Shown in pieces: positions 23,143-36,093 of a DNA stretch of 64,000 bases. The notes below the pieces were generated by a model. That model was not told the DNA's origin. It saw nothing but the letters and a program-made list of their open reading frames with translations, and did not search any database. The stretch is from Pseudomonas sp. (lineage in GTDB: Bacteria; Pseudomonadota; Gammaproteobacteria; Pseudomonadales; Pseudomonadaceae). Where the stretch lies: positions 1-64,000 of the forward strand of contig NZ_JAUXMX010000037.1 of the NCBI RefSeq assembly GCF_030683065.1, in the 5' to 3' direction. The stretch's first letter is position 1. The number at the start of each line of letters is the position of its first letter. The position numbers were made by a program, and so were the translations under genes.

Positions 23143-25389
23143 TCAGAACGGCCTCCCCAAGTAGAGGTAGAAACTGTTGTTGCCGTCCTGTGCCCGCCCG
23201 TAACCCAGATATAGCGGCCCCAGGGGACTGTCTGCGCCAACGAAGATGCTGGCGGATTTCAGCCAATCCTCCGAATTGCCACGCACTAGTGGGTTGCCGA
23301 TACGTCCAGCCTCAAGGGATAAGCCGCCATAAGCACCCTCCAGCAGAGTGCCGCGCATAATCCGGTGGTAGTACATAAGACGGCCGAACTGCAGGCTTTC
23401 GCCGAGCAACTGGCCGGTGGAGTAACCAGACTGCTGGAGGAAACCGCCCCACTGGAAGTACTCGTAACGTGGCAAGGGGGCACTGCCCAGCTTGTCTCCC
23501 ACTTTCATGGAGAAGTTGAACGTGTGATTACCGAACGACTTGGCCAGCGTGCCATCAGCAACCACACGGGTGAATGCTTCATCCGCGCCCAGCGCACTGC
23601 GCGAATCATAGATATTCAACCCCGCACGCCAGCCCGAACGGGGGAAATGAACGCTGTCGAGCTGATCAAGTAGTAGGCGGCCGGTCAACGCGCCCAGTTG
23701 TACCCGCGACTCGCCCGGCGACAGGATCTGCGGGCCGGTATCCAGGGTCGGTTCCAAGATACCCCCGAGTATACCCAGACGCAATTCACCATAGCGGCTG
23801 AAATGACTGCCCAGGTCGACCCCGGCGGATTTTTCCAGCACCTCATAGCTGGCGATCCGATCATCTTGCTGATAGAGGTCGGCGGTACGCCGCTCAATAG
23901 TCAGGTGCGGGGCGACAAACAACGGCCCCGTAGCGCTTAAGGGCTGATAGAACTCACTGTACAGGCCACTGGTACGACCAATCTGCAGATCGCTGCGCCA
24001 CTCGGCGCCCAGTTCATTGAGCCAGGTTTTCCGATAGCTGCCGAGCAGGTTGAAGTAGGCGTCGCCACTGAAGTCAGTGGACAGGCCCAGACCGAAACGC
24101 AGGTAGTCAGGCCCCCAGGATTTCTCCGCGGCATCAATGGCCAGCACATGTTTGCCGGCATCATCCAGCAGGCTGTACTTCACATGCTCGAAGTGGCCGG
24201 TGCCATACAGACGACGCAGATCGCGATCCAGGGTGGGCTGATCGATCAACTCGCCCACCCGGGTATCCAGCACTGCCTGGGCATAGTTGGGATTGACCCG
24301 CTGCAGGTTCTCGAAGCGGATCTCATCTACCACCCGCTGCTCAGGCTGCACGGTGATCTGCTGGCGCTGACGCAAAGCGGCATAGTCCGCGGGCGGCATG
24401 GACAGGTGCTGAAGTTGGGCGGACACCTGGCGTGCGGCGGTCTCCCCCAGCGGGGCAATCTGTCTCAGGTTGTCGAAATCGCCAGTAGAGAAATTGCCCA
24501 GCTCCGGGGAAATCAGGATGTCTTGGTCCGTCAGCGTCGCCAGCGAGGCCTGGACGTTCTGCTCGGTCAGGATGCTCAGCATTTGCCCGGTGACGCCGAA
24601 TATACCGTTGATCTCCTCGCGCTTGAGCAGCGGGGTCCCGACATTGACCGCGATGATGATATCCGCCCCCATTTCACGGGCAGTCTGCACGGGCAGGTTG
24701 CTGGTGAGCATGCCATCGACCAGGAGCATGCCATCGACTTCGGCCGGGGCCACAGCACCCGGTACCGACATGCTGGCGCGCATCACGTTCGCCAGTTCGC
24801 CCCGGTCGAAGACCACGGCCTTGCCGGTGACCAAGTCGGTAGCGATCGCACGGAAGGGTATGGGTAGGTCATCGAACACGTAGAAGCCTTTTGCCTTGCT
24901 CAACTGGCGCAGCACAGTTTCCAGTTGCACCCCGGTCACCAAGCCCTTGCCGACCTTCACCTGGCCCTGCTGCAAACCCACCTCGGGGGTGAAGAGAATC
25001 GTGTAGTCATCCTGTTTGCGGCGCATATTCTGCTCTTGCCGCGGCGGGTTTTCCTTGAACAGCAGTTCGGTGGAAATACTACCGAGCAACTGCTCCATCT
25101 CCGGTAGTGACATACCAGTGGCGAAGGCAGCTCCCACCAGCGCCCCCATGCTGGTCCCGGCGATACAGTCGATTGGAATACGGTATTCATCCAGCACTTT
25201 GAGCACACCGACATGGGCAGCACCGCGCGCGCCACCACCGGAAAGCACCAGGCAGATGCGCGGGCGCGCCTCGTCCAAGGCCGCGGATTCGGTCCGCTGG
25301 TGATTGGCGGCCAGAAGGGATGCGGATAAGCATGCAGCCGTAATGGCTATCCATAACGGATACATGTAACGGACAAACCCTGCGTTCAT
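23143..25389 (-). CDS. PlpD-type patatin phospholipase autotransporter (type Vd)
   Basis: This 748-aa protein has a signal peptide (~1-28) followed by a patatin lipase domain (~44-330) with oxyanion loop GGGARG, nucleophile elbow GTSMG and catalytic Asp in LLVDGMLTSN. A POTRA-like region (~340-410) leads into a 16-strand Omp85-like β-barrel ending in NSFYLYLGRPF with a terminal aromatic. This is the architecture of P. aeruginosa PlpD, a secreted lipolytic enzyme. The ATG at 25389 has GGGAGG. It is the distal gene in the run of exported-protein genes that begins with the sulfatase. The lipid substrate is not deducible. Confidence 0.93.
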   Translation of the reverse strand: MNAGFVRYMYPLWIAITAACLSASLLAANHQRTESAALDEARPRICLVLSGGGARGAAHVGVLKVLDEYRIPIDCIAGTSMGALVGAAFATGMSLPEMEQLLGSISTELLFKENPPRQEQNMRRKQDDYTILFTPEVGLQQGQVKVGKGLVTGVQLETVLRQLSKAKGFYVFDDLPIPFRAIATDLVTGKAVVFDRGELANVMRASMSVPGAVAPAEVDGMLLVDGMLTSNLPVQTAREMGADIIIAVNVGTPLLKREEINGIFGVTGQMLSILTEQNVQASLATLTDQDILISPELGNFSTGDFDNLRQIAPLGETAARQVSAQLQHLSMPPADYAALRQRQQITVQPEQRVVDEIRFENLQRVNPNYAQAVLDTRVGELIDQPTLDRDLRRLYGTGHFEHVKYSLLDDAGKHVLAIDAAEKSWGPDYLRFGLGLSTDFSGDAYFNLLGSYRKTWLNELGAEWRSDLQIGRTSGLYSEFYQPLSATGPLFVAPHLTIERRTADLYQQDDRIASYEVLEKSAGVDLGSHFSRYGELRLGILGGILEPTLDTGPQILSPGESRVQLGALTGRLLLDQLDSVHFPRSGWRAGLNIYDSRSALGADEAFTRVVADGTLAKSFGNHTFNFSMKVGDKLGSAPLPRYEYFQWGGFLQQSGYSTGQLLGESLQFGRLMYYHRIMRGTLLEGAYGGLSLEAGRIGNPLVRGNSEDWLKSASIFVGADSPLGPLYLGYGRAQDGNNSFYLYLGRPF

Positions 25390-26654: not shown

Positions 26655-28922
26655 CTAGTACAACAGCGGGTCCTCGGGATTGAGGCTAGCCAGTTCCGCG
26701 AACAATGCATTGGCCTGTTGTATGGCACCGGACTCACGCAGGTAACTGATCAGGGCCATACGCAGGGTGCGGTTGGCCGGGGCCAGCACTAGCTGGGCGC
26801 GCAGCAGGGTCAGCGCCGCCTCGACTTGCCCAGCATCGTGCAGGGCAACGGCGAGCACATAGGCGTAATCGCGATTCTCCGGGGCCAGTTCATAAGCCTG
26901 ACGCAATGCCGCCAACGCCTCCTGACGCTGACCACTACGAACCAGTGCCAGGCCCAGTGCGTGGTACAGGCTTGCCTCCTCGGGGTAATTCGCCGTGCTT
27001 TCGTGCAACAGCGCGATACCCTGCCCTGCCTGCCCCTGGGCTTCCAGCCATTGCGCCAGCATTAGCCGTGCGGGATGAAAATTCGGATTACGCTGCAAGG
27101 CCAGGTGCAAACTCGACTCGGCCTGATCGGCGCGCTGGGTCACTTGATAGAGCGCGGCCAGATTGGTCAGCGCCTCGGCACGATCCAGCTGCGCCCGCTG
27201 CGCCTGCTCATAGTCAGCCAGGACCGCCGGCCAGCGCGGCAAGCCTTGGTGCAAGGCGGGCGGTAGTTGTGCCAACTGCCAGGTGGCGGCCAGTCGTACC
27301 GCTCGACGAGGGTCATTCAACAGCGGGCCAAGAGCCTGTACCTGTTGCTCGGGCGTGGTCAGCGCGCCCACCACTTCGATAGCCGCCAGGCGTACGACGG
27401 GGTCGGGATGACGCAGGGCCGCAACCAGTATCTGCCCCGCCTGCGGTGTCGGATACTGGGGCAACTCTGCCAGCAGGGTCGCCTTGCGCAACCCAGGTAA
27501 ATCCGTTCTCGCCAACTGTGCATAGAGCGCGGCAGCTGCACCGGCACGCCCCTTGCGGGCGGAAAACAGGGCCTGAGCATAGCCGCCGTCGGCTGGCGCC
27601 GGCATGCCGTACCAGGCGTTAAACTGCTCAACAAGCTTCCCCGTTTCATCCTGCTGGTGGCACCCCAAGCAGGCGTCGCTGTGACCAAGTTCCAAAGCCT
27701 GGCGCGGGTTGGGCCGGCTAAAGCTGTGGTCATGGCGCAGGTCATTGCCCATGTAGTAACGCCCGGGCATATGGCAGCTCTGACATTGAGCACCTGGCGA
27801 ATCTACAGGGTGATGGTGGTGAGCCGGCGACTGATAGTCCTTGGCCTGCAAACCACCCATTCGAATGCCGCTGCGGATGGCCTGGCCGCTGGGGTTATGA
27901 CACTGGGTACAGACAGCGTCGCCCCTGGCGCGCAGTTCAGTGCTATGGGGGTTGTGGCAATCCGAGCAGCGCACGCCGGCGGTATGCATACGACTCTGGG
28001 TGAAGGAACCGTACTCGAACACTTCGTCTTGAATCTTGCCGTCGACCTCATATACACCGGCAGCCAGGAGGCTGGGCTGGTAATCGTCATACAGCCGATT
28101 TGCTGCGTGGTAGCCCACCTCCAGCGCCGCACGGCGGCTATGGCAGCGGGCACAGGTCTCCACTTCTGTGTGATTGCCGGCATCCTTCAGGTTCACCGGC
28201 AAGCCACGGCCGGTTGTGCCGAAGCCCTGCGGATCGGCCGCCCAAAGCAGATGATTGGAGGCTGGGCCATGACAGCTCTGACAACCCACGCCCAAAGCCT
28301 GCCAACGGCTGGAAAAACTATTGGTTTGACTGTCGAAGCGGCGCTCGAATCCGGTGGTATGGCATTCGATGCACATGGCGTTGGCATTCTGCTGCGCACC
28401 GCTCCAGTGCAGCGGATCACGATGATCCACCTGGGGATAGAGATGGAACCACTGTTGCTGCTCCACATTCCAGGCTGCCCCCAGGGCCTGCAGATGACCA
28501 CCCGGCAGCGCCAGCAGATACTGTTGCAGCGGGCTGACGCCGAATGTATAGGCCACCTTGAAATCGGCTGGCTGGCCGTCTGCCCCCGGCAGGGTGACCC
28601 AGAACTCCTCACCCTTGCGCTTAAAGACTGTGGTTTCTGCCGGCGTATGCAACGGCGCGGCAGTGAAGTCCGCCAGAACGGTCTCAGCACTGGCAAGCTG
28701 CATAGCCAGATGATGATGGGAGCCTTGCCAGTCCTGCACCTGTGAGGAATGACAACCCTGGCATTGCTGCTCATCCACCCAGCGCGCTGCACCCTGAGGG
28801 GTCGGTACCGCTGGTGTGTCCCACCAGATGGCATAAATGCCAGCCACCAGGATCAGGCAAAGAGCCAATAACACTAACCAGAAGCCTTGACGTGGCAGGT
28901 GGGTATGCATAGTGAAAGGCAT
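26655..28922 (-). CDS. Octaheme c-type cytochrome with HEAT and TPR repeats
   Basis: This ~755-aa protein has an N-terminal membrane anchor (WLVLLALCLILVAGIYAIWW) and eight CxxCH haem-binding motifs in the first ~430 residues: CQGCH, CIECH, CQSCH, CARCH, CSDCH, CTQCH, CQSCH and CLGCH. A HEAT-like segment follows (LRHPDPVVRLAAIEVVGAL, LNDPRRAVRLAATWQLAQL). At least four TPR units finish the protein. It should sit in the periplasm anchored to the inner membrane and transfer electrons, or act as a multihaem enzyme, with the repeats docking a partner. I choose the ATG at 28922 over an upstream GTG because the first residues lead into the anchor; the ribosome-binding site is poor for each. Confidence 0.9.
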   Translation of the reverse strand: MPFTMHTHLPRQGFWLVLLALCLILVAGIYAIWWDTPAVPTPQGAARWVDEQQCQGCHSSQVQDWQGSHHHLAMQLASAETVLADFTAAPLHTPAETTVFKRKGEEFWVTLPGADGQPADFKVAYTFGVSPLQQYLLALPGGHLQALGAAWNVEQQQWFHLYPQVDHRDPLHWSGAQQNANAMCIECHTTGFERRFDSQTNSFSSRWQALGVGCQSCHGPASNHLLWAADPQGFGTTGRGLPVNLKDAGNHTEVETCARCHSRRAALEVGYHAANRLYDDYQPSLLAAGVYEVDGKIQDEVFEYGSFTQSRMHTAGVRCSDCHNPHSTELRARGDAVCTQCHNPSGQAIRSGIRMGGLQAKDYQSPAHHHHPVDSPGAQCQSCHMPGRYYMGNDLRHDHSFSRPNPRQALELGHSDACLGCHQQDETGKLVEQFNAWYGMPAPADGGYAQALFSARKGRAGAAAALYAQLARTDLPGLRKATLLAELPQYPTPQAGQILVAALRHPDPVVRLAAIEVVGALTTPEQQVQALGPLLNDPRRAVRLAATWQLAQLPPALHQGLPRWPAVLADYEQAQRAQLDRAEALTNLAALYQVTQRADQAESSLHLALQRNPNFHPARLMLAQWLEAQGQAGQGIALLHESTANYPEEASLYHALGLALVRSGQRQEALAALRQAYELAPENRDYAYVLAVALHDAGQVEAALTLLRAQLVLAPANRTLRMALISYLRESGAIQQANALFAELASLNPEDPLLY

Positions 28923-29013
28923 TCTAAAATCCGGACAGAGAGAACAACGCAATTCACCAGCCCCCGCCACACCAAGCCCAAGAGCGAGGAGTGGGGAGGC
29001 ACCGCCATCGAAC

Positions 29014-29673
29014 TTACTGGAAACTCAATATATCGCGGGTCAGGTTGTCGATCACCGATTTGAAGTCATTGGCAGTTAGCACCTGCTTGTCATTATCCAG
29101 GGTTTTGCCAAGGCCCTTGCGCACAACGCGCAGTAAGGGTTTGCCAGTGGAGGTGTCCACCAGTTCCGCTTCCAGATACAGCTCGGAGTTCTGACTGCGC
29201 CCGCCACTGGCCGCCATGGCACCAGCCACCACCAAGGCTACCGGAATCACCTCATAGGGTTTAAGGCCCTGGGTACTAGCATCGACACCGGTGATGGCCC
29301 CGCGAAACGCCAGGGTACCCGGGCCGGCACCGATACTGGCCGGCTTCAGGCGACTGAACAGGGCAGTACTCACTCTGTCATTGGTGTAATCCAGCAGCTC
29401 CTGCAGGGTCTGCTGGTTGATACGTTCGCTGGAATGAGGCTCTGGATAGAAACGGATGGGCTGGTAAATCACTTGGGTGTAGTTGGCTACGTTGAAATCA
29501 GGGTCGGCCCAGCGCAGCACGCTATCACCACTGGTGGTCTTGGCCGCACTCAAGCCCTCGTAACTGGACAGGAATCCGGAATACTGCGACTGACTGGTGG
29601 TCGTAGTACTGCATCCACCGAGGGCGAAAACAGTGGCCAATAAGCCGCTCAATAGCAGTTTCGTTGTTTTCAT
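29014..29673 (-). CDS. DUF3313 lipoprotein
   Basis: This 219-aa lipoprotein has a lipobox ALGGC at residues ~19-23 after a short signal. The mature part reads YSGFLSSYEGLSAAKTTSGD and later QNSELYLEAELVDTSTGKPL, as in DUF3313 outer-membrane lipoproteins. The ATG at 29673 (MKTTKLLLSG) has GGAG and is preferred to the ORF start at 29691. It lies between the octaheme cytochrome and an outer-membrane protein in the sulfatase run. No function is established for DUF3313; an envelope accessory role is inferred from context. Confidence 0.85.
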   Translation of the reverse strand: MKTTKLLLSGLLATVFALGGCSTTTTSQSQYSGFLSSYEGLSAAKTTSGDSVLRWADPDFNVANYTQVIYQPIRFYPEPHSSERINQQTLQELLDYTNDRVSTALFSRLKPASIGAGPGTLAFRGAITGVDASTQGLKPYEVIPVALVVAGAMAASGGRSQNSELYLEAELVDTSTGKPLLRVVRKGLGKTLDNDKQVLTANDFKSVIDNLTRDILSFQ

Positions 29674-29766
29674 CGTTAACACTCCAGGCAAGTAAACAGG
29701 CGATGTGCTTAAAAGTAGAGTCGATAGATGCCAGCATCATGTGCGCAATGCTGTGCCCTGAAGAGC

Positions 29767-30570
29767 TTAACGTGGGAATAGCAGGGTCACCGCCGCCCTG
29801 AAACCCCAGCCGTATGCACCATTTACCGTACTGTCGAGCCAGTAACGTGGACCGAGCTGAATGCTCAAAGGCTGGCCGCCAATCCTCAGCAGCTGGGTCA
29901 CCGACAGGTTCAGCGGCACGGACCACTCTTTAGTCCGCCAGTCATAAGTTGACTCGGTATTGACACCGAAGCTGGTGTAGGTAGAGGTGGTGTAGGACAC
30001 AAAGGGTTGCAGAAAGGTGGCGTTGATCCTTTCACGGTCATCGGCAGGGCTACCCTCCAGCGACCACAGATGATTAGCCAGAGCGCCAACGGTCCAGCCA
30101 TTGGCCTGTTTCAGGACCACCGCCGTAGGGCCGGCGGCCCACTGATCCTGGGTTAGCAGATCATCGCTACCAGTCGGGATAAGAAATACCGGGCCTGCGC
30201 CCCAGATCCAGCCACTCTCGGTGGCGGCCTTGGGTGAAAAGAACAGACTTTGGGTCACATCACCGATACCTGACTTATCCGCCAATCCATTGGGGGCCAG
30301 GCTGCGCTGATCGATTACCGGCAGAATAGTCCTTGAGATCAAGTTCCAATCTTCATTGATGGAAAACGGCAGTACCGGTTGGATATTGGTCACCGTCTGG
30401 ATGCCGTCGCTGGTTGGCCCCAGCTTCTGGTTCCAGTTGTACTGCACCGGCAGGCTGTAAATCGCGGCGATGGGATTGAGGGATTTTTTCGCCAGCTCCG
30501 CCGCGTCATCAGCCAGTGCCCCACTCGCCACAAGGACCAGGCAGCCCCCTATCAAACCGTTACACTTCAC
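29767..30570 (-). CDS. Outer-membrane β-barrel protein of the 'transporter' (MetA-like) type
   Basis: This 267-aa protein starts with a GTG preceded by GGGG. It has a signal peptide ending SGALA and alternating hydrophobic strands typical of a small barrel (IQPVLPFSINEDWNLISRTI, WIWGAGPVFLIPTGSDD), ending AAVTLLFPR with the C-terminal aromatic region. It resembles the loosely defined outer-membrane 'transporter' proteins related to Phenol_MetA_deg. It follows the FadL-type gene. Passive transport of a hydrophobic compound is possible, but no substrate evidence exists. Confidence 0.7.
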   Translation of the reverse strand: MKCNGLIGGCLVLVASGALADDAAELAKKSLNPIAAIYSLPVQYNWNQKLGPTSDGIQTVTNIQPVLPFSINEDWNLISRTILPVIDQRSLAPNGLADKSGIGDVTQSLFFSPKAATESGWIWGAGPVFLIPTGSDDLLTQDQWAAGPTAVVLKQANGWTVGALANHLWSLEGSPADDRERINATFLQPFVSYTTSTYTSFGVNTESTYDWRTKEWSVPLNLSVTQLLRIGGQPLSIQLGPRYWLDSTVNGAYGWGFRAAVTLLFPR

Positions 30571-30783: not shown

Positions 30784-32049
30784 CTAGAAGCGCCAGGTCG
30801 CACTGGCACTCAGAACCTGGATCCAGGCACCGTCGAAACTGCCAGACACGCGGTCACCATTGGGTTTTTCCTGGGTAACCGGCATGTCACCCATCCAGGC
30901 GAACTCATAGCTCAGATTCAGCTCGGTCTGCTCATCCAGCGCATGGGTAAGGCCGGTAGCGAAACGCCAGTTCTCACCCATTGGCACGGTGATACTGCGA
31001 TCCTTGTCGGCCACCGACGAGCTGTCGTAACCCACACCCGCCGACCACATCCAGCGTGGGTCGAAACGGTATTGGCTACCCAGCGACAGGTGCCAGGTGT
31101 CCTTGAAGTTGGCATTCAGGGAAGCCGACTTGGGCTGGTTGCTGTCCAGGTCGATACCGACCTCACCAAAGCGCGACCAGTCTTGCCAGTTGGCGCTGGC
31201 CAGCAGCGCCCACTGTGGATCCAGTTGGTGATACAGGCTGAAGGTCAGGGTCTGCGGCACCTGCATCTTCAGGGTAGTGGCGGCGTCCAGCACGCCGCGA
31301 TTTTGCAATGCGTTCGTGGCTAGCGGGCCCAGGCCCTCAAGCTTCATGTTGTCCTCGAACTCCAGGTCTATCTCGCTGGTGTAACTGAGACCCAGGCGGG
31401 TACCCGGATTCGGCGAATAGATCAGCCCAAGGCTGGCGCCATAGCTCCAGTCATCGGCTTCGAACTTGGCCCGGCCATCGCTCAGCAGCGGATTGAGATT
31501 GTTCACCGCCAGCTCGTTGCTCAGCATGGCGTAGTAGCCAATCAAGCCGAGGCCAACAGCCCACTGATCGTTGAACTTGTAGGCCACGCTGGGCATAAAG
31601 GTCATGCCCATCAGTGCCCCGTCCTGCAGGAAGTAGCGACCGCTCCAGTCGTCCTCGTAGTCGACACTCAGGCCGAAATCACCATAGTTGGCGAAGCCGA
31701 CGGACCAGCCATTGCCCAGCTCATGGGTGACGAACAGGCTGGCGCCCGGGATCCACTCCACCGCATTGCCACTGTCGCCGCCGCCGACAGTGGTGTTGCC
31801 GTCGACTTCGAAGCGCATATTGCCGTGCAACAGCTGAGCCCCACCACTGACCTGGGTACCGGACAGCAGCGCCATACCTGCCACGTTGCTAGCCAGGGTC
31901 GCCGGCCCCTGGGCACGTGCAGCAGCACCGGCGTTGGCCAGGCCGACGCCGTCGCTGCCAACCTCATAAAGCATCAGGCCACCGGCCAGCGCCGGCAGGG
32001 GCAAGGCCACCAGACAGGCCAGCAGGGTCAGGGGGAAATTCGGTTTCAT
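30784..32049 (-). CDS. FadL/OmpP1/TodX-family outer-membrane channel
   Basis: This 421-aa protein has a signal peptide (~1-22) followed by the FadL N-terminal hatch region, GGLMLYEVGSDGVGLANAGA, with the conserved GLANAGAAARAQG segment where FadL proteins plug the barrel. About fourteen β-strands follow, ending VLSASATWRF with the terminal Phe. FadL-family channels admit hydrophobic molecules such as fatty acids or aromatic hydrocarbons by lateral diffusion. It is directly downstream of the arylsulfatase, separated by a strong hairpin. The two are likely co-transcribed, implying a sulfated or hydrophobic substrate. Confidence 0.92.
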   Translation of the reverse strand: MKPNFPLTLLACLVALPLPALAGGLMLYEVGSDGVGLANAGAAARAQGPATLASNVAGMALLSGTQVSGGAQLLHGNMRFEVDGNTTVGGGDSGNAVEWIPGASLFVTHELGNGWSVGFANYGDFGLSVDYEDDWSGRYFLQDGALMGMTFMPSVAYKFNDQWAVGLGLIGYYAMLSNELAVNNLNPLLSDGRAKFEADDWSYGASLGLIYSPNPGTRLGLSYTSEIDLEFEDNMKLEGLGPLATNALQNRGVLDAATTLKMQVPQTLTFSLYHQLDPQWALLASANWQDWSRFGEVGIDLDSNQPKSASLNANFKDTWHLSLGSQYRFDPRWMWSAGVGYDSSSVADKDRSITVPMGENWRFATGLTHALDEQTELNLSYEFAWMGDMPVTQEKPNGDRVSGSFDGAWIQVLSASATWRF

Positions 32050-32114: not shown

Positions 32115-34469
32115 TCAATGCACCTGAACGGTGATTGTGTCGATTTTGCCGGTGAAGGCCGAACGCTGGCCGCTGCCGATGCTTTCCACCACCGGGGTGG
32201 CCAGATCGACGCCGACATCAGCCGTTTCATCCGCGGAGAACACCACAGGCTGAGTGCGCTCAATCCGTCCTTCTGCCACCTTCTGCTCATTCACGTAAAG
32301 CGTGCCCTGCCCGCCCTTGCCGAGGCCACCGCCGTCATAGGCGAACTCATAGCGCACAGTGGCCTTGCCCGCCGGCAGTGGTTTACTCGCCTGCAGTGCA
32401 GTCTGCTGCAAACCCAGGTAGTTGTAGGCGTAACCCGGCACGCCGTCCTTGACGTACAGCGACCAGCCACCGAAACGGCCACCCTGAGCGATCAGGGTGC
32501 CATTGGCCCCGCCTGCGGGGATCTCCACCTCGGCGGTGATGGTCTTGGACTTGTTCTTCACGTTGATAAAGACGTTTTCGCTCATGCGCGTCATGCCCTC
32601 GCCCAGGGTCAGGGAGGTACGACCAGCCATCAGATCCAGACGCCCGGCGATTTCCGGCACGGCCCGCTCAAAGCCACGGTCATCGATGGGCAGCACGTGG
32701 TTCTTTTCGGCTTCGGCCATAAACAGGGCCTGCATCTGCTTGAGCTTCTCCGGCTGCTTGGCGGCCAGATCAGTACTCAGGCTGAAGTCATTGCGCACAT
32801 CGAACAGCTCCCAGACATCGTCGGCCAAGGGACGAATCGGCTTGGGCGCCCAGGCCTCGCGGTGGATGGTGCGGGCAAACCAGCCCTCATGGTAGATGGC
32901 GCGGTTGCCCACGATCTCGAAGTACTGGGTGGTGTTGCGCTCGGCTGCCTTGGCATCATCGAAGCTGTACGCCATGCTGGTGCCTTGCATGGGGATCTGC
33001 GGGGTACCATTGACCACTTTCGGCTCCGGCAAGCCGGCCGCCTCGAGAATGGTCGGCGCCACGTCGATCACATGGCTGAACTGGCTGCGTATTTCGCCCT
33101 TGGCCTTGATGCCCTTGGGCCAACTCACCACCAGGCCATTGCGGGTACCACCGAAATCGGAGGCCACCTGCTTGGTCCAGGCGAAGGGCGCGTCGAAGGC
33201 CACGGCCCAACCGGCGGCCATGTGCGGATAGGTGTCCGCACTGCCCCAGCTGTCCAGCTTCTTCAGCATGTCCGCCAGGCTTTCCGGTACACCGTTGAAG
33301 TAGGTGTACTCGTTGCTCATGCCGAACTCGCCGCCTTCGGCGCTGGTACCGTTGTCGCCGATGATGTAGTAGACCAGCGTATTGTCGGCCTGACCGATGT
33401 CGGCGGTAGCCTGCAGCAGGCGGCCGACCTCATGGTCGGTGTAATCGACGAATGCGGCAAAGACTTCGGCCTGATGGCTGAACAAGCGCTTCTCGTCAGC
33501 CGAAAGTTTGTCCCAGTCCTTGATTGCGGTGGGTTTGGGCGGCAGCTTGGTGCCGGCCGGAACGACGCCCTGCTTGATCTGACGGGCCAGGCTTTCTTCG
33601 CGGATCTTGTCCCAGCCCTGATCGAATTTACCCTTCCACTTGGCGATCCACTCCTTGGGCACATGATGCGGCGCATGCACGGCACCCGGCGAAAAGTAGA
33701 CAAAGAACGGTTTATCCGGCGTCAGCGCCTTCTGGTACTTCATCCAGGCCACGGCCTGGTCGGTCATGTCGGTGAGGAAGTGGTAATTCGGGTCCTCCGG
33801 CGCCTCGATCGGCGTGGTGCCATCGTACAGCGCCGGCGCCCAGTGATTGGTCTCACCGCCAAGGAAACCGTAGAACTTGTCGAAGCCCTGCTGAGTAGGC
33901 CAGCGGTTGAACGGGCCAGATACACCGGTTTCCGCCGCAGGCGTTTCATGCCACTTGCCGAAAGCGGCGGTGCTGTAACCATTTAGACGCAGCATCTCGG
34001 CCACGGGTGCAGTGGCGTTGGGAATCTGCCCGGTGTTGCCGGGGAAAGCCGTGGCCAACTCGGTGATCAGGCCCATGTTCACCGTATGGTGATTGCGCCC
34101 GGATTTGAGCGCGGCGCGGGTCGGCGAGCACACCGCCGTGGTGTGGAAGTTGTTGTAGCGCAGACCCTGCTGGGCCAGGCCATCGAGGGTCGGGGTCGTA
34201 ATCGGGCCACCAAAGGTGCTGGTTGCGCCAAAACCCAAATCATCGATCAGCACAATGATCACGTTAGGTGCGCCCTTGGGCGCCTCAATCCGGAAAGGAG
34301 CAGGCGGCGTGGCATTGCGCACGTCCAGTTCGGTGTAGCGAGGACGCTCAGGCTCGGCGATTGGAAGCACCGTGCGCTCGAGCGCCGGAGCGCCGGTTTG
34401 AGCATAAGCACCGATACTCGACAAGCTGCCGAGAAGAAAACAACACAAGACCGATCCGTAACGTTTCAT
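32115..34469 (-). CDS. Periplasmic type I arylsulfatase
   Basis: This 784-aa sulfatase has a signal peptide (MKRYGSVLCCFLLGSLSSIGAYA). Metal ligands lie in VLIDDLGFGA (Asp76/77), and the formylglycine motif CSPTRAALKSGR begins with Cys114, so a maturase is needed to activate it. Other conserved parts are GKWHE and YFSPGAVHAPHH. The C-terminal ~200 residues form a β-rich extension (NKSKTITAEVEIPAGGANGT..). It hydrolyses sulfate esters. The substrate is unknown, but the adjacent FadL channel favours a hydrophobic sulfate ester. No formylglycine-generating enzyme gene is present in the window. It is the first gene of the envelope run. Confidence 0.93.
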   Translation of the reverse strand: MKRYGSVLCCFLLGSLSSIGAYAQTGAPALERTVLPIAEPERPRYTELDVRNATPPAPFRIEAPKGAPNVIIVLIDDLGFGATSTFGGPITTPTLDGLAQQGLRYNNFHTTAVCSPTRAALKSGRNHHTVNMGLITELATAFPGNTGQIPNATAPVAEMLRLNGYSTAAFGKWHETPAAETGVSGPFNRWPTQQGFDKFYGFLGGETNHWAPALYDGTTPIEAPEDPNYHFLTDMTDQAVAWMKYQKALTPDKPFFVYFSPGAVHAPHHVPKEWIAKWKGKFDQGWDKIREESLARQIKQGVVPAGTKLPPKPTAIKDWDKLSADEKRLFSHQAEVFAAFVDYTDHEVGRLLQATADIGQADNTLVYYIIGDNGTSAEGGEFGMSNEYTYFNGVPESLADMLKKLDSWGSADTYPHMAAGWAVAFDAPFAWTKQVASDFGGTRNGLVVSWPKGIKAKGEIRSQFSHVIDVAPTILEAAGLPEPKVVNGTPQIPMQGTSMAYSFDDAKAAERNTTQYFEIVGNRAIYHEGWFARTIHREAWAPKPIRPLADDVWELFDVRNDFSLSTDLAAKQPEKLKQMQALFMAEAEKNHVLPIDDRGFERAVPEIAGRLDLMAGRTSLTLGEGMTRMSENVFINVKNKSKTITAEVEIPAGGANGTLIAQGGRFGGWSLYVKDGVPGYAYNYLGLQQTALQASKPLPAGKATVRYEFAYDGGGLGKGGQGTLYVNEQKVAEGRIERTQPVVFSADETADVGVDLATPVVESIGSGQRSAFTGKIDTITVQVH

Positions 34470-34619: not shown

Positions 34620-35657
34620 TTAAAGAGGCTGCCTCAGGACTTGTAGACAGTTGCGCCGCAGGGCTCGCCACTGCGAAGGTGGCAAACCGGACCAGCGCCT
34701 GAATGCGCGATTGAACGACCCAGCGTCGGTGTATGCGAGCATGGCGGCGACCGCTTTTACGCTGAGATCTGTTTCCTTCAATAGCCTCTTGCTGATGGCG
34801 TAACGGGCCACATCTACAATTGAAAAATAACTCGCACCCTCCAATTCCAGCTGCCGATTCAGGGAACGTGTACTGAGGCCAAGATGCTGAGCAATATCAG
34901 CCTGGCAACATTTGCCAGACAGTAGCTGCGCATAAATGGCGACCTGCGCACGCTCAGCCAATGCCAGATGACCGGCCGGGTTAGCCGCGCACTCAACACC
35001 GGCCAAGCCAGGTAAGCCTGTAGGCAACACTCTTGCCAGCACCTCCGAAGGGAAGAGCAGTTCGTTATTCAGGCTGTTGAAGTGACATGGCGCCCCCATC
35101 AATTGCTCATATTTCTCGGGCCTAGTCGGTGGGCGATGGGAGAAGTGTAGTGCCTCAGGCCGCCATGTGGGCCCGCACAAATCCTGCATGATGCGTAATG
35201 CGATCATAAGGGCCGCGTCCTGAATCAATGACAACCCACTGAAGCTGCCCTCAAACACGCCATAACCTAATGCCGCGTATCCATCCACATGACGCAGGGT
35301 CACAATTGCGGCACGATCGTGCAGATACAGCATTTGCTGCGCTGCCTCCAAGGCCTGCCCCACTGTCGGCATCATGCCCATCACTTGAGCGACCGGGCCG
35401 AGCTGAGCGACACCGCTGTAATACCCCAGCAATAGCCCCAAGTGTTCGCAATGCAACTGCTGGGCAGCGCGTTCCAAGATGCGCCCCAACGTGACCATCG
35501 GAATACTATTCTCCGGCTGTTGAAGCAGTGCAGGCGAAATATTCAACTCGCGCAAAATGGGCGCCAAGGAGCCGCCCAAAGACTCCATCAGCCTGGGCAA
35601 TGCCATCAGCGGAGCCACCCGCAGTTGCCCTCTAGCCAAAGATAACGACCTATCCAT
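34620..35657 (-). CDS. AraC-family regulator with arabinose-binding-type N-terminal domain
   Basis: This ~345-aa regulator has the OruR/ArgR-like layout: an N-terminal effector domain (~20-210, PF12625 type) with APILRELNISPALLQQPENS and a C-terminal pair of helix-turn-helix units (~240-335). The signature AMLAYTDAGSFNRAFRRWSG is well kept. The ATG at 35657 is used; a GTG two codons upstream is an alternative. Members of this subgroup often control lipid, ester or amino-acid catabolic genes next to them. It is upstream of and co-directional with the sulfatase, so it is the obvious candidate regulator of the exported-protein run. Confidence 0.9.
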   Translation of the reverse strand: MDRSLSLARGQLRVAPLMALPRLMESLGGSLAPILRELNISPALLQQPENSIPMVTLGRILERAAQQLHCEHLGLLLGYYSGVAQLGPVAQVMGMMPTVGQALEAAQQMLYLHDRAAIVTLRHVDGYAALGYGVFEGSFSGLSLIQDAALMIALRIMQDLCGPTWRPEALHFSHRPPTRPEKYEQLMGAPCHFNSLNNELLFPSEVLARVLPTGLPGLAGVECAANPAGHLALAERAQVAIYAQLLSGKCCQADIAQHLGLSTRSLNRQLELEGASYFSIVDVARYAISKRLLKETDLSVKAVAAMLAYTDAGSFNRAFRRWSGLPPSQWRALRRNCLQVLRQPL

Positions 35658-36093
35658 AGCCACCTGCCTTGTTCAATCCGAACGCAATGCCCGCCAAGCG
35701 AGCTGCACCGGATTCTAGGTAGCACGAAGCTTGGCTTTATTAATCCAGATCAACGTAATCAGTGATGCTCAGGTACGTGGCCAGCACGTAATACTGCAGC
35801 CATGTCATTTGACCTAACCGTGTTGGTTGTAAAGTCCTAAGCCGGCGTGCCCCATCTTGATGGTCAATCCATCTCGTCAGGATGTCCCCGGCATACTGAA
35901 TAACCTGCCCGGCAAGCGAGGTGTCAACACAAAAGGCGGCACTGCGGCCGGACAACGCCGTAAGGACGATCCGTGGCCGCGAGCCCTATGAAGGAAGGAT
36001 CTTAACTAACGGATTGAGTTTGCCGTCATGGTGACGCCTACCAACTTTTCCTTCAGGCATCTGGCATGAACGAATACTCGTATTCACGTTACC
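35658..36093. other. Intergenic region, nothing recognised
   Basis: About 435 bp between the AraC gene and the elastin-like gene. A 71-codon open frame at 35740-35955 on the minus strand lacks a ribosome-binding site and any familiar motif, and is not annotated. I see no repeat or terminator. Confidence 0.4.

What the first reader, a model, noticed from the sequence alone, without database searches (positions are those of the whole stretch)
26655..28922. Octaheme cytochrome c fused to HEAT and TPR repeats
Eight CxxCH motifs followed by protein-docking repeats in one membrane-anchored periplasmic chain. A catalytic CxxCK (as in nitrite or hydroxylamine-type enzymes) is not seen, so electron transfer or unknown redox chemistry is likely. 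Clear DMSO-, nitrite- or metal-reductase partners are missing nearby, so its partner may be among the unknown neighbours.
Basis: partly seen in the sequence, partly recalled or inferred. Interest (0 to 1): 0.5.

Follow-up and report, generated by a model that had tools for sequence, protein, structure and literature searches.

The report
Heme protein partnering exported sulfatases

Summary
In detail: window 26658-28910 (-) encodes a 751-aa membrane-anchored protein with eight CxxCH, HEAT and TPR repeats and no CxxCK. The partner is not unknown. It is the Cys-type, Sec-exported sulfatase in the same gene run (32115-34469). Full-length relatives occur across Gamma- and Alphaproteobacteria. 41 of 65 relatives' loci carry such a sulfatase nearby, of several distant subfamilies, often with a HAD hydrolase and a MoxR/VWA/BatD operon. 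In 149 Pseudomonas genomes, all 47 with one exported sulfatase type have the cytochrome (47/47 versus 5/102). 43 of the 52 cytochrome-bearing genomes lack both known formylglycine makers (FGE with its Cys pair, radical-SAM anSME). The same cassette occurs elsewhere with FGE or anSME in place of the cytochrome, and I never found two of them together in one cassette. I therefore propose a third, heme-based, periplasmic sulfatase maturation factor, docking exported sulfatases by HEAT/TPR and oxidising the active-site Cys to formylglycine. The sulfatase link is strong. The maturase role is inferred (about 0.6). The chemistry is untested. The heme domain resembles OcwA, which has two open-site hemes. 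A third maturation system has been postulated since 2007.

The parts
26658..28910 (-). octaheme cytochrome c with HEAT and TPR repeats (751 aa), proposed sulfatase maturation factor
28821..28892 (-). N-terminal membrane anchor helix (residues 7-30)
   Evidence: AlphaFold/DSSP helix 7-30 and hydrophobic sequence
27621..28775 (-). heme domain, eight CxxCH (residues 46-430)
28431..28643 (-). conserved beta-sheet insertion between heme 1 and heme 2 (residues 90-160) with invariant P127 L128 Q129 Q130 Y131, W147, W154; the most conserved part of the chain
27231..27602 (-). HEAT-repeat region (about residues 437-560)
   Evidence: Pfam HEAT_2 and model helices
26667..27185 (-). TPR region (about residues 576-748)
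   Evidence: Pfam TPR families and model helices
32115..34469 (-). Sec-exported Cys-type sulfatase (784 aa), proposed client; CSPTR motif with Cys114 at 34128-34130
   Evidence: PF00884 1e-58; motif CSPTR; N-terminus MKRYGSVLCCFLLGSLSSIGAYAQ
30784..32049 (-). FadL/TodX-type outer-membrane transporter, between sulfatase and cytochrome; the trio sulfatase-FadL-cytochrome is kept in L060 and L062
   Evidence: PF03349 5e-72
29767..30570 (-). 267-aa predicted secreted protein without Pfam match, in the same run
29014..29691 (-). DUF3313 predicted lipoprotein, also next to the cytochrome in many relatives (cluster c4)
   Evidence: PF11769 4e-51
34620..35663 (-). AraC-family regulator upstream of the run (possible regulator)

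Best explanation
The protein is a sulfatase-dedicated periplasmic cytochrome that most likely matures Sec-exported, Cys-type sulfatases. Proposed steps: (1) it is anchored in the inner membrane by its N-terminal helix; (2) its HEAT/TPR solenoid docks the sulfatase as it emerges from Sec; (3) the CxPxR / CxAxR cysteine is presented to an open-coordination heme near the conserved beta insertion and is oxidised by two electrons, giving formylglycine (FGly) after hydrolysis; (4) the remaining hemes pass the electrons to the respiratory chain. It would thus do the job of FGE (copper, O2) or anSME (radical SAM) by a third chemistry. Shown from sequence: anatomy, conserved linkage and co-occurrence with exported Cys-type sulfatases, genome-wide absence of both known maturases in most hosts tested, and replacement by FGE or anSME in otherwise equivalent cassettes. 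Inferred: that it acts on the sulfatase, that the product is FGly, and steps 2-4.
For: (a) Linkage: 41 of 65 cytochrome loci examined have a sulfatase within the 3-22 kb fetched (within about 8 kb where present), Cys-type wherever the motif was readable; named records include Rhizobium johnstonii 3841 pRL11 and Sinorhizobium meliloti pSymA (arylsulfatase-HAD-cytochrome) and Methylocystis, Methylosinus, Pseudoalteromonas, Vibrio. (b) Client diversity: the partner sulfatases are of distant subfamilies (26-35% identity between some), while the cytochrome is the constant. (c) Co-occurrence in 149 Pseudomonas genomes: 47/47 with the c1 sulfatase have the cytochrome, 5/102 without it; Fisher p 2e-33, not corrected for phylogeny. 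The five extra have another exported Cys-type sulfatase, near the cytochrome in at least four. In genomes without the cytochrome the sulfatases sampled were cytosolic (nine AtsA-like; G013) or sat next to FGE. (d) No known maturase: 43/52 cytochrome-bearing Pseudomonas lack Cys-pair FGE and above-cutoff anSME; 36/36 fetched PF03781 hits were PvdO-like without the Cys pair; G118, G132, G148 have no PF03781 hit at all. The host genome has one PF03781 protein, without the Cys pair, and no anSME. (e) Slot replacement: the same sulfatase/HAD/MoxR-DUF58-VWA-BatD cassette genes come with FGE in Methylobacterium, R. rhizogenes, R. leguminosarum WSM1325, C. metallidurans, Caballeronia, Ensifer and G347/G165/G315, or with anSME in Pantoea, Klebsiella aerogenes and Paraburkholderia; no cytochrome cassette contains FGE or anSME and none of these contains the cytochrome. 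(f) Specificity fits: Ser-type sulfatases (STAGR, STPGR) appear only in anSME cassettes. (g) Compartment fits in the G347, G165, G315 and G314 loci: FGEs beside exported c1-like sulfatases are lipoprotein or membrane-anchored, the FGE beside a cytosolic c1 is cytosolic. (h) The heme domain is OcwA-like, and OcwA has two open-site hemes (PMC6703420).
Against: No biochemical evidence; I recall no cytochrome c reported to make FGly. Exported c1 sulfatases without cytochrome, FGE or anSME occur in one genus (MAGs G160 97%, G313 87% complete). Other Gammaproteobacteria have exported Cys-type sulfatases without the cytochrome, whose FGE/anSME status I could not check. 24 of 65 cytochrome loci show no sulfatase nearby (many are short MAG contigs), and two cytochrome-bearing class genomes (G354, G327) gave no c1-query match. 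Nine of 52 cytochrome-bearing Pseudomonas also have FGE or anSME. Some FGEs in rhizobial and Methylobacterium cassettes have no obvious export signal, so the compartment argument is not uniform. E. coli's postulated third system cannot be this one if, as I recall, E. coli lacks such a cytochrome (not tested). Co-occurrence counts are not phylogenetically independent. The active-site heme is inferred by analogy only.
Confidence: 0.6

Rival explanations
1. Sulfatase companion that does not make FGly: the HEAT/TPR part is a periplasmic chaperone or dock, and the hemes protect or reset the redox state of the active-site cysteine, while FGly is made by a still unknown system of the kind postulated for E. 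coli.
For: Strong sulfatase linkage without proof of the product; E. coli modifies some Cys-type sulfatases with unidentified machinery (PMC6189696); a repeat solenoid is a typical dock.
Against: Does not by itself explain the exclusive swap with FGE and anSME in equivalent cassettes.
Confidence: 0.17
2. Electron-transfer module for catabolism: the sulfatase frees an alcohol or phenol that is oxidised in the periplasm, and the octaheme protein carries those electrons.
For: FadL-type importers near several loci including the window suggest uptake of hydrophobic sulfate esters; the heme fold is that of electron-transfer and reductase cytochromes.
Against: No dehydrogenase is conserved beside it; unrelated sulfatase subfamilies share it; FGE or anSME take its place in otherwise equivalent cassettes.
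Confidence: 0.13
3. An OTR/ONR/HAO/MccA-type octaheme reductase or oxidase of small N or S compounds with docking repeats.
For: Fold relationship to OcwA and weakly to MccA; OcwA reduces nitrite and reacts with hydroxylamine (PMC6703420).
Against: No CxxCK, no MccA-type CX11-17CH; conserved neighbours are sulfatase, HAD and MoxR/VWA, not N or S respiration genes.
Confidence: 0.06

Closest known systems
OcwA, nonaheme cell-surface cytochrome of Thermincola (PDB 6I5B)
   Same: Best solved relative of the heme domain by profile (1e-19) and fold (Foldseek 1.6e-13, TM 0.65 by query length)
   Different: 8 instead of 9 hemes; HEAT/TPR instead of the three-helix bundle; conserved PLQQY beta insertion; sulfatase neighbourhood instead of metal or electrode respiration
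FGE, copper/O2 formylglycine-generating enzyme (PF03781 with GGS.LC....C Cys pair)
   Same: Occupies the same slot in sulfatase-HAD-MoxR/VWA cassettes; serves Cys-type sulfatases
   Different: Unrelated fold and cofactor; the cytochrome has no Cys outside the heme motifs except one in the anchor helix
anSME / AtsB / ChuR radical-SAM sulfatase maturase (TIGR03942)
   Same: Occupies the same slot (Pantoea, Klebsiella, Paraburkholderia)
   Different: Radical-SAM enzyme without export signal; serves Ser- and Cys-type sulfatases
Cytochrome c554 / NrfA / HAO / MccA group
   Same: Heme motif order and local sequence around hemes 2-4 (Pfam C554; PDB 1BVB, 4e-9)
   Different: No CxxCK, no CX11-17CH; different repeats and neighbours

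Membership tests
FGE (aerobic formylglycine-generating enzyme) | SUMF1/PF03781 fold | tested here: not met
   No PF03781 match to the protein
FGE (aerobic formylglycine-generating enzyme) | C-terminal Cys pair (GGS.LC....C) | tested here: not met
   16 of 17 Cys are heme Cys, the other lies in the anchor helix
anSME (radical-SAM sulfatase maturase) | Radical-SAM domain with CxxxCxxC | tested here: not met
   No Pfam or NCBIfam radical-SAM match
Sulfatase maturation systems (functional class) | Gene linkage to or co-occurrence with a Cys/Ser-type sulfatase | tested here: met
   41/65 loci; 47/47 c1-bearing Pseudomonas genomes
Sulfatase maturation systems (functional class) | Occupies the maturase slot and excludes other maturases from the cassette | tested here: met
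Sulfatase maturation systems (functional class) | Converts Cys/Ser to formylglycine | not testable with these tools
   Needs mass spectrometry or enzymology
OcwA/NrfA/HAO/MccA multiheme superfamily | Shared heme-domain fold and motif order | tested here: met
OcwA/NrfA/HAO/MccA multiheme superfamily | Open-coordination catalytic heme | tested here: inconclusive
   Only about seven conserved non-motif His for eight hemes; an HH pair (364/365) aligns roughly with the OcwA heme-5 pocket; no heme-bound model
NrfA / OTR-type reductases | CxxCK or Lys-ligated catalytic heme | tested here: inconclusive
   CxxCK absent; a distal Lys ligand was not tested
MccA sulfite reductase | CX15CH-type eighth heme motif | tested here: not met
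   No CX11-17CH

The most novel reading that the evidence does not exclude
A heme-based, oxygen-independent formylglycine-generating system working in the periplasm: an octaheme cytochrome oxidises the active-site cysteine of exported sulfatases and feeds the electrons to respiration. It would be a third sulfatase maturation chemistry next to FGE and anSME.
Probability: 0.5. Interest if true: 0.93.

Novelty: categorically new. Interest (0 to 1): 0.82.

Why it matters
Sulfatases need a rare active-site residue, formylglycine, and only two enzyme classes are known to make it. A third bacterial system was postulated in 2007 (Benjdia et al., cited in PMC6189696) and the 2015 paper still called its machinery unidentified. 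This family is a concrete candidate in well-studied, tractable bacteria (Pseudomonas, Rhizobium, Sinorhizobium, Methylosinus). If confirmed it adds a new protein-modification chemistry, explains how periplasmic sulfatases are activated in hosts without FGE/anSME, and offers a new tool for formylglycine (aldehyde-tag) protein engineering.

Tried and rejected
Relation to OTR, ONR, HAO, NrfA or MccA as enzyme type: fold kinship only, motifs absent. Whole-chain Foldseek was swamped by TPR proteins, so the heme domain was modelled alone. TPR-less octaheme homologues (L206, L207) sit with triheme and probable cytochrome b genes, not sulfatases, so the sulfatase link seems specific to the HEAT/TPR form. 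The idea that FGE exists elsewhere in the genome was tested in Pseudomonas and rejected for 43 of 52 hosts. Own-genome FGE-like protein checked: no Cys pair. S. meliloti papers mention the arylsulfatase SMa1683 in an expression table only; I did not establish that it is the one beside the cytochrome. Literature searches for a sulfatase/multiheme link found nothing, but subscription papers are largely not held. Promoter/terminator scan was uninformative.

Full report
WHAT IS THERE. The ORF on the minus strand at 26655-28970 encodes, from the ATG at 28910, a 751-residue protein with eight CxxCH motifs; shuffled sequence gives 0.016 on average. Pfam finds c554/c7-type heme stretches, HEAT_2 and several TPR families. 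The AlphaFold model (mean pLDDT 91) has an N-terminal transmembrane helix, a heme domain with a beta-sheet insertion between hemes 1 and 2, and a continuous helical repeat region to the C-terminus.

FAMILY. Full-length relatives were found in 52 of 149 other Pseudomonas genomes sampled and in about 20 of 274 sampled genomes of the class, and on 146 plasmid records, mostly of Rhizobium and Sinorhizobium but also Pseudoalteromonas, Vibrio, Methylosinus and Methylocystis. In an alignment of 50 relatives, 46 keep all eight heme motifs; a small Pseudomonas subgroup has lost heme 8. The beta insertion (with invariant P127-Y131, W147, W154) is the most conserved part of the chain. Closest solved structure of the heme domain is OcwA (profile 1e-19; Foldseek 1.6e-13), which carries two hemes with open coordination sites (PMC6703420).

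PARTNER. In the window the cytochrome lies in a run sulfatase - FadL - unknown - DUF3313 - cytochrome, all on the minus strand. The trio sulfatase-FadL-cytochrome is kept in P. guryensis and Pseudomonas sp. 8AS. Across 65 loci, 41 show a sulfatase close by, Cys-type wherever the motif could be read and with a signal peptide in most. The partner sulfatases are diverse (c1 with CTAGR; c21 with CSPTR; lipoprotein types with CSPSR; rhizobial CTPGR), so the cytochrome serves sulfatases in general rather than one substrate. In named records: Rhizobium johnstonii 3841 pRL11 arylsulfatase-HAD-cytochrome, S. meliloti pSymA the same, Methylocystis and Methylosinus arylsulfatase-cytochrome, Pseudoalteromonas and Vibrio adjacent. 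Qingshengfaniella is an exception.

CO-OCCURRENCE. With the c1 sulfatase as query in the same 149 genomes, all 47 strongly positive genomes have the cytochrome; 5 of 102 others have it, and these five have another exported Cys-type sulfatase (Fisher p 2e-33, not corrected for phylogeny). Several c1 genes lie far from the cytochrome (e.g. G046, G005, G128), so this is not only linkage. In genomes without the cytochrome, nine sampled sulfatases were cytosolic AtsA-like forms, and in G051, G081 and G024 the sulfatase sits next to FGE. Two genomes (G140, G087) show only partial matches to the cytochrome and have no strong c1 sulfatase.

ABSENCE OF KNOWN MATURASES. FGE was called by the C-terminal Cys pair, anSME by the TIGR03942 cut-off. 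Of 52 cytochrome-bearing Pseudomonas genomes, 8 have FGE and 2 anSME (9 in all), 43 neither. The abundant PF03781 hits in this genus are PvdO-like: 36 of 36 fetched lack the Cys pair; the remaining hits were assigned by score only. G118, G132 and G148 have no PF03781 hit at all. The window's own genome has one PF03781 protein without the Cys pair and no anSME. Of 20 cytochrome-bearing class genomes, a clear FGE was found in G363 and anSME in G389 only.

SLOT REPLACEMENT. The strongest argument is the comparison of cassettes. Accessory genes MoxR, DUF58, DUF4381, two VWA, BatD, an exported HAD hydrolase and, in some, an MFS/spermidine-synthase-like protein accompany the sulfatase. In Pseudomonas and rhizobia the cassette has the cytochrome. 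In Methylobacterium nodulans, R. rhizogenes, R. leguminosarum WSM1325, Cupriavidus metallidurans, Caballeronia, Ensifer and three unnamed Gammaproteobacteria it has FGE; in Pantoea, Klebsiella aerogenes and Paraburkholderia it has anSME. No cassette examined has two of the three. Ser-type sulfatases appear only with anSME. In four loci where it could be compared, FGEs beside exported c1-like sulfatases carry a lipoprotein or membrane anchor (G347, G165, G315), while the FGE beside a cytosolic c1 sulfatase (G314) is cytosolic, as expected if modification happens in the compartment where the client folds; the rhizobial and Methylobacterium cassette FGEs show no obvious export signal, so this is not uniform.

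MECHANISM. Inferred: the HEAT/TPR solenoid holds the emerging sulfatase, and an open-site heme takes two electrons from the CxPxR cysteine, giving formylglycine, with electrons leaving through the heme chain. Conserved non-motif His (66, 168, 220, 322, 364, 367, 395) are about one short of full bis-His ligation for eight hemes, which allows but does not prove an open site.

LIMITS. No biochemical data exist. A third maturation system was postulated from E. coli mutants (Benjdia 2007, cited in PMC6189696); this cytochrome probably does not explain E. coli itself.

VERDICT. A sulfatase-dedicated function is very likely (about 0.9). A maturase that makes formylglycine is the best explanation (about 0.6). 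If true it is a new chemistry for a known need, carried by a protein of a known fold superfamily; that is why the proposed function, not the fold, is rated categorically new.

Noticed in passing
L075-L083 (e.g. L075 9006-10097 +): Stand-alone membrane-anchored HEAT/TPR protein (about 350-400 aa, no heme motif) about 40% identical to the C-terminal half of the octaheme protein, found in most Pseudomonas sampled and next to an RND efflux operon in several loci.
   Followed up: partly
L206 3396-4667 and L207 9845-11089: Octaheme homologues without HEAT/TPR, beside a triheme protein and a probable cytochrome b gene, not near sulfatases; perhaps a separate respiratory complex.
   Followed up: partly
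L115, L117, L118, L119: A Pseudomonas subgroup has lost heme 8 of the octaheme protein while keeping the sulfatase cassette.
   Followed up: no
L294/L309, L298, L299, L305-L307: MoxR-DUF58-DUF4381-VWA-VWA-BatD-HAD genes travel with sulfatases whichever maturase is present; perhaps metal (calcium) insertion or folding of the sulfatase, as MoxR-type genes do for methanol dehydrogenase.
   Followed up: partly
L123 865-2466 (-), host genome contig 8: 533-aa FGE-fold protein without the catalytic Cys pair, beside a permease-like gene; function unclear.
   Followed up: no
G160 and G313 (L202, L204): Exported c1 sulfatase in genomes where none of cytochrome, FGE or anSME was detected; either assembly gaps or yet another system.
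   Followed up: partly
window 23143-25389 (-): Patatin-like phospholipase fused to an Omp85-type barrel, directly downstream of the run.
   Followed up: no
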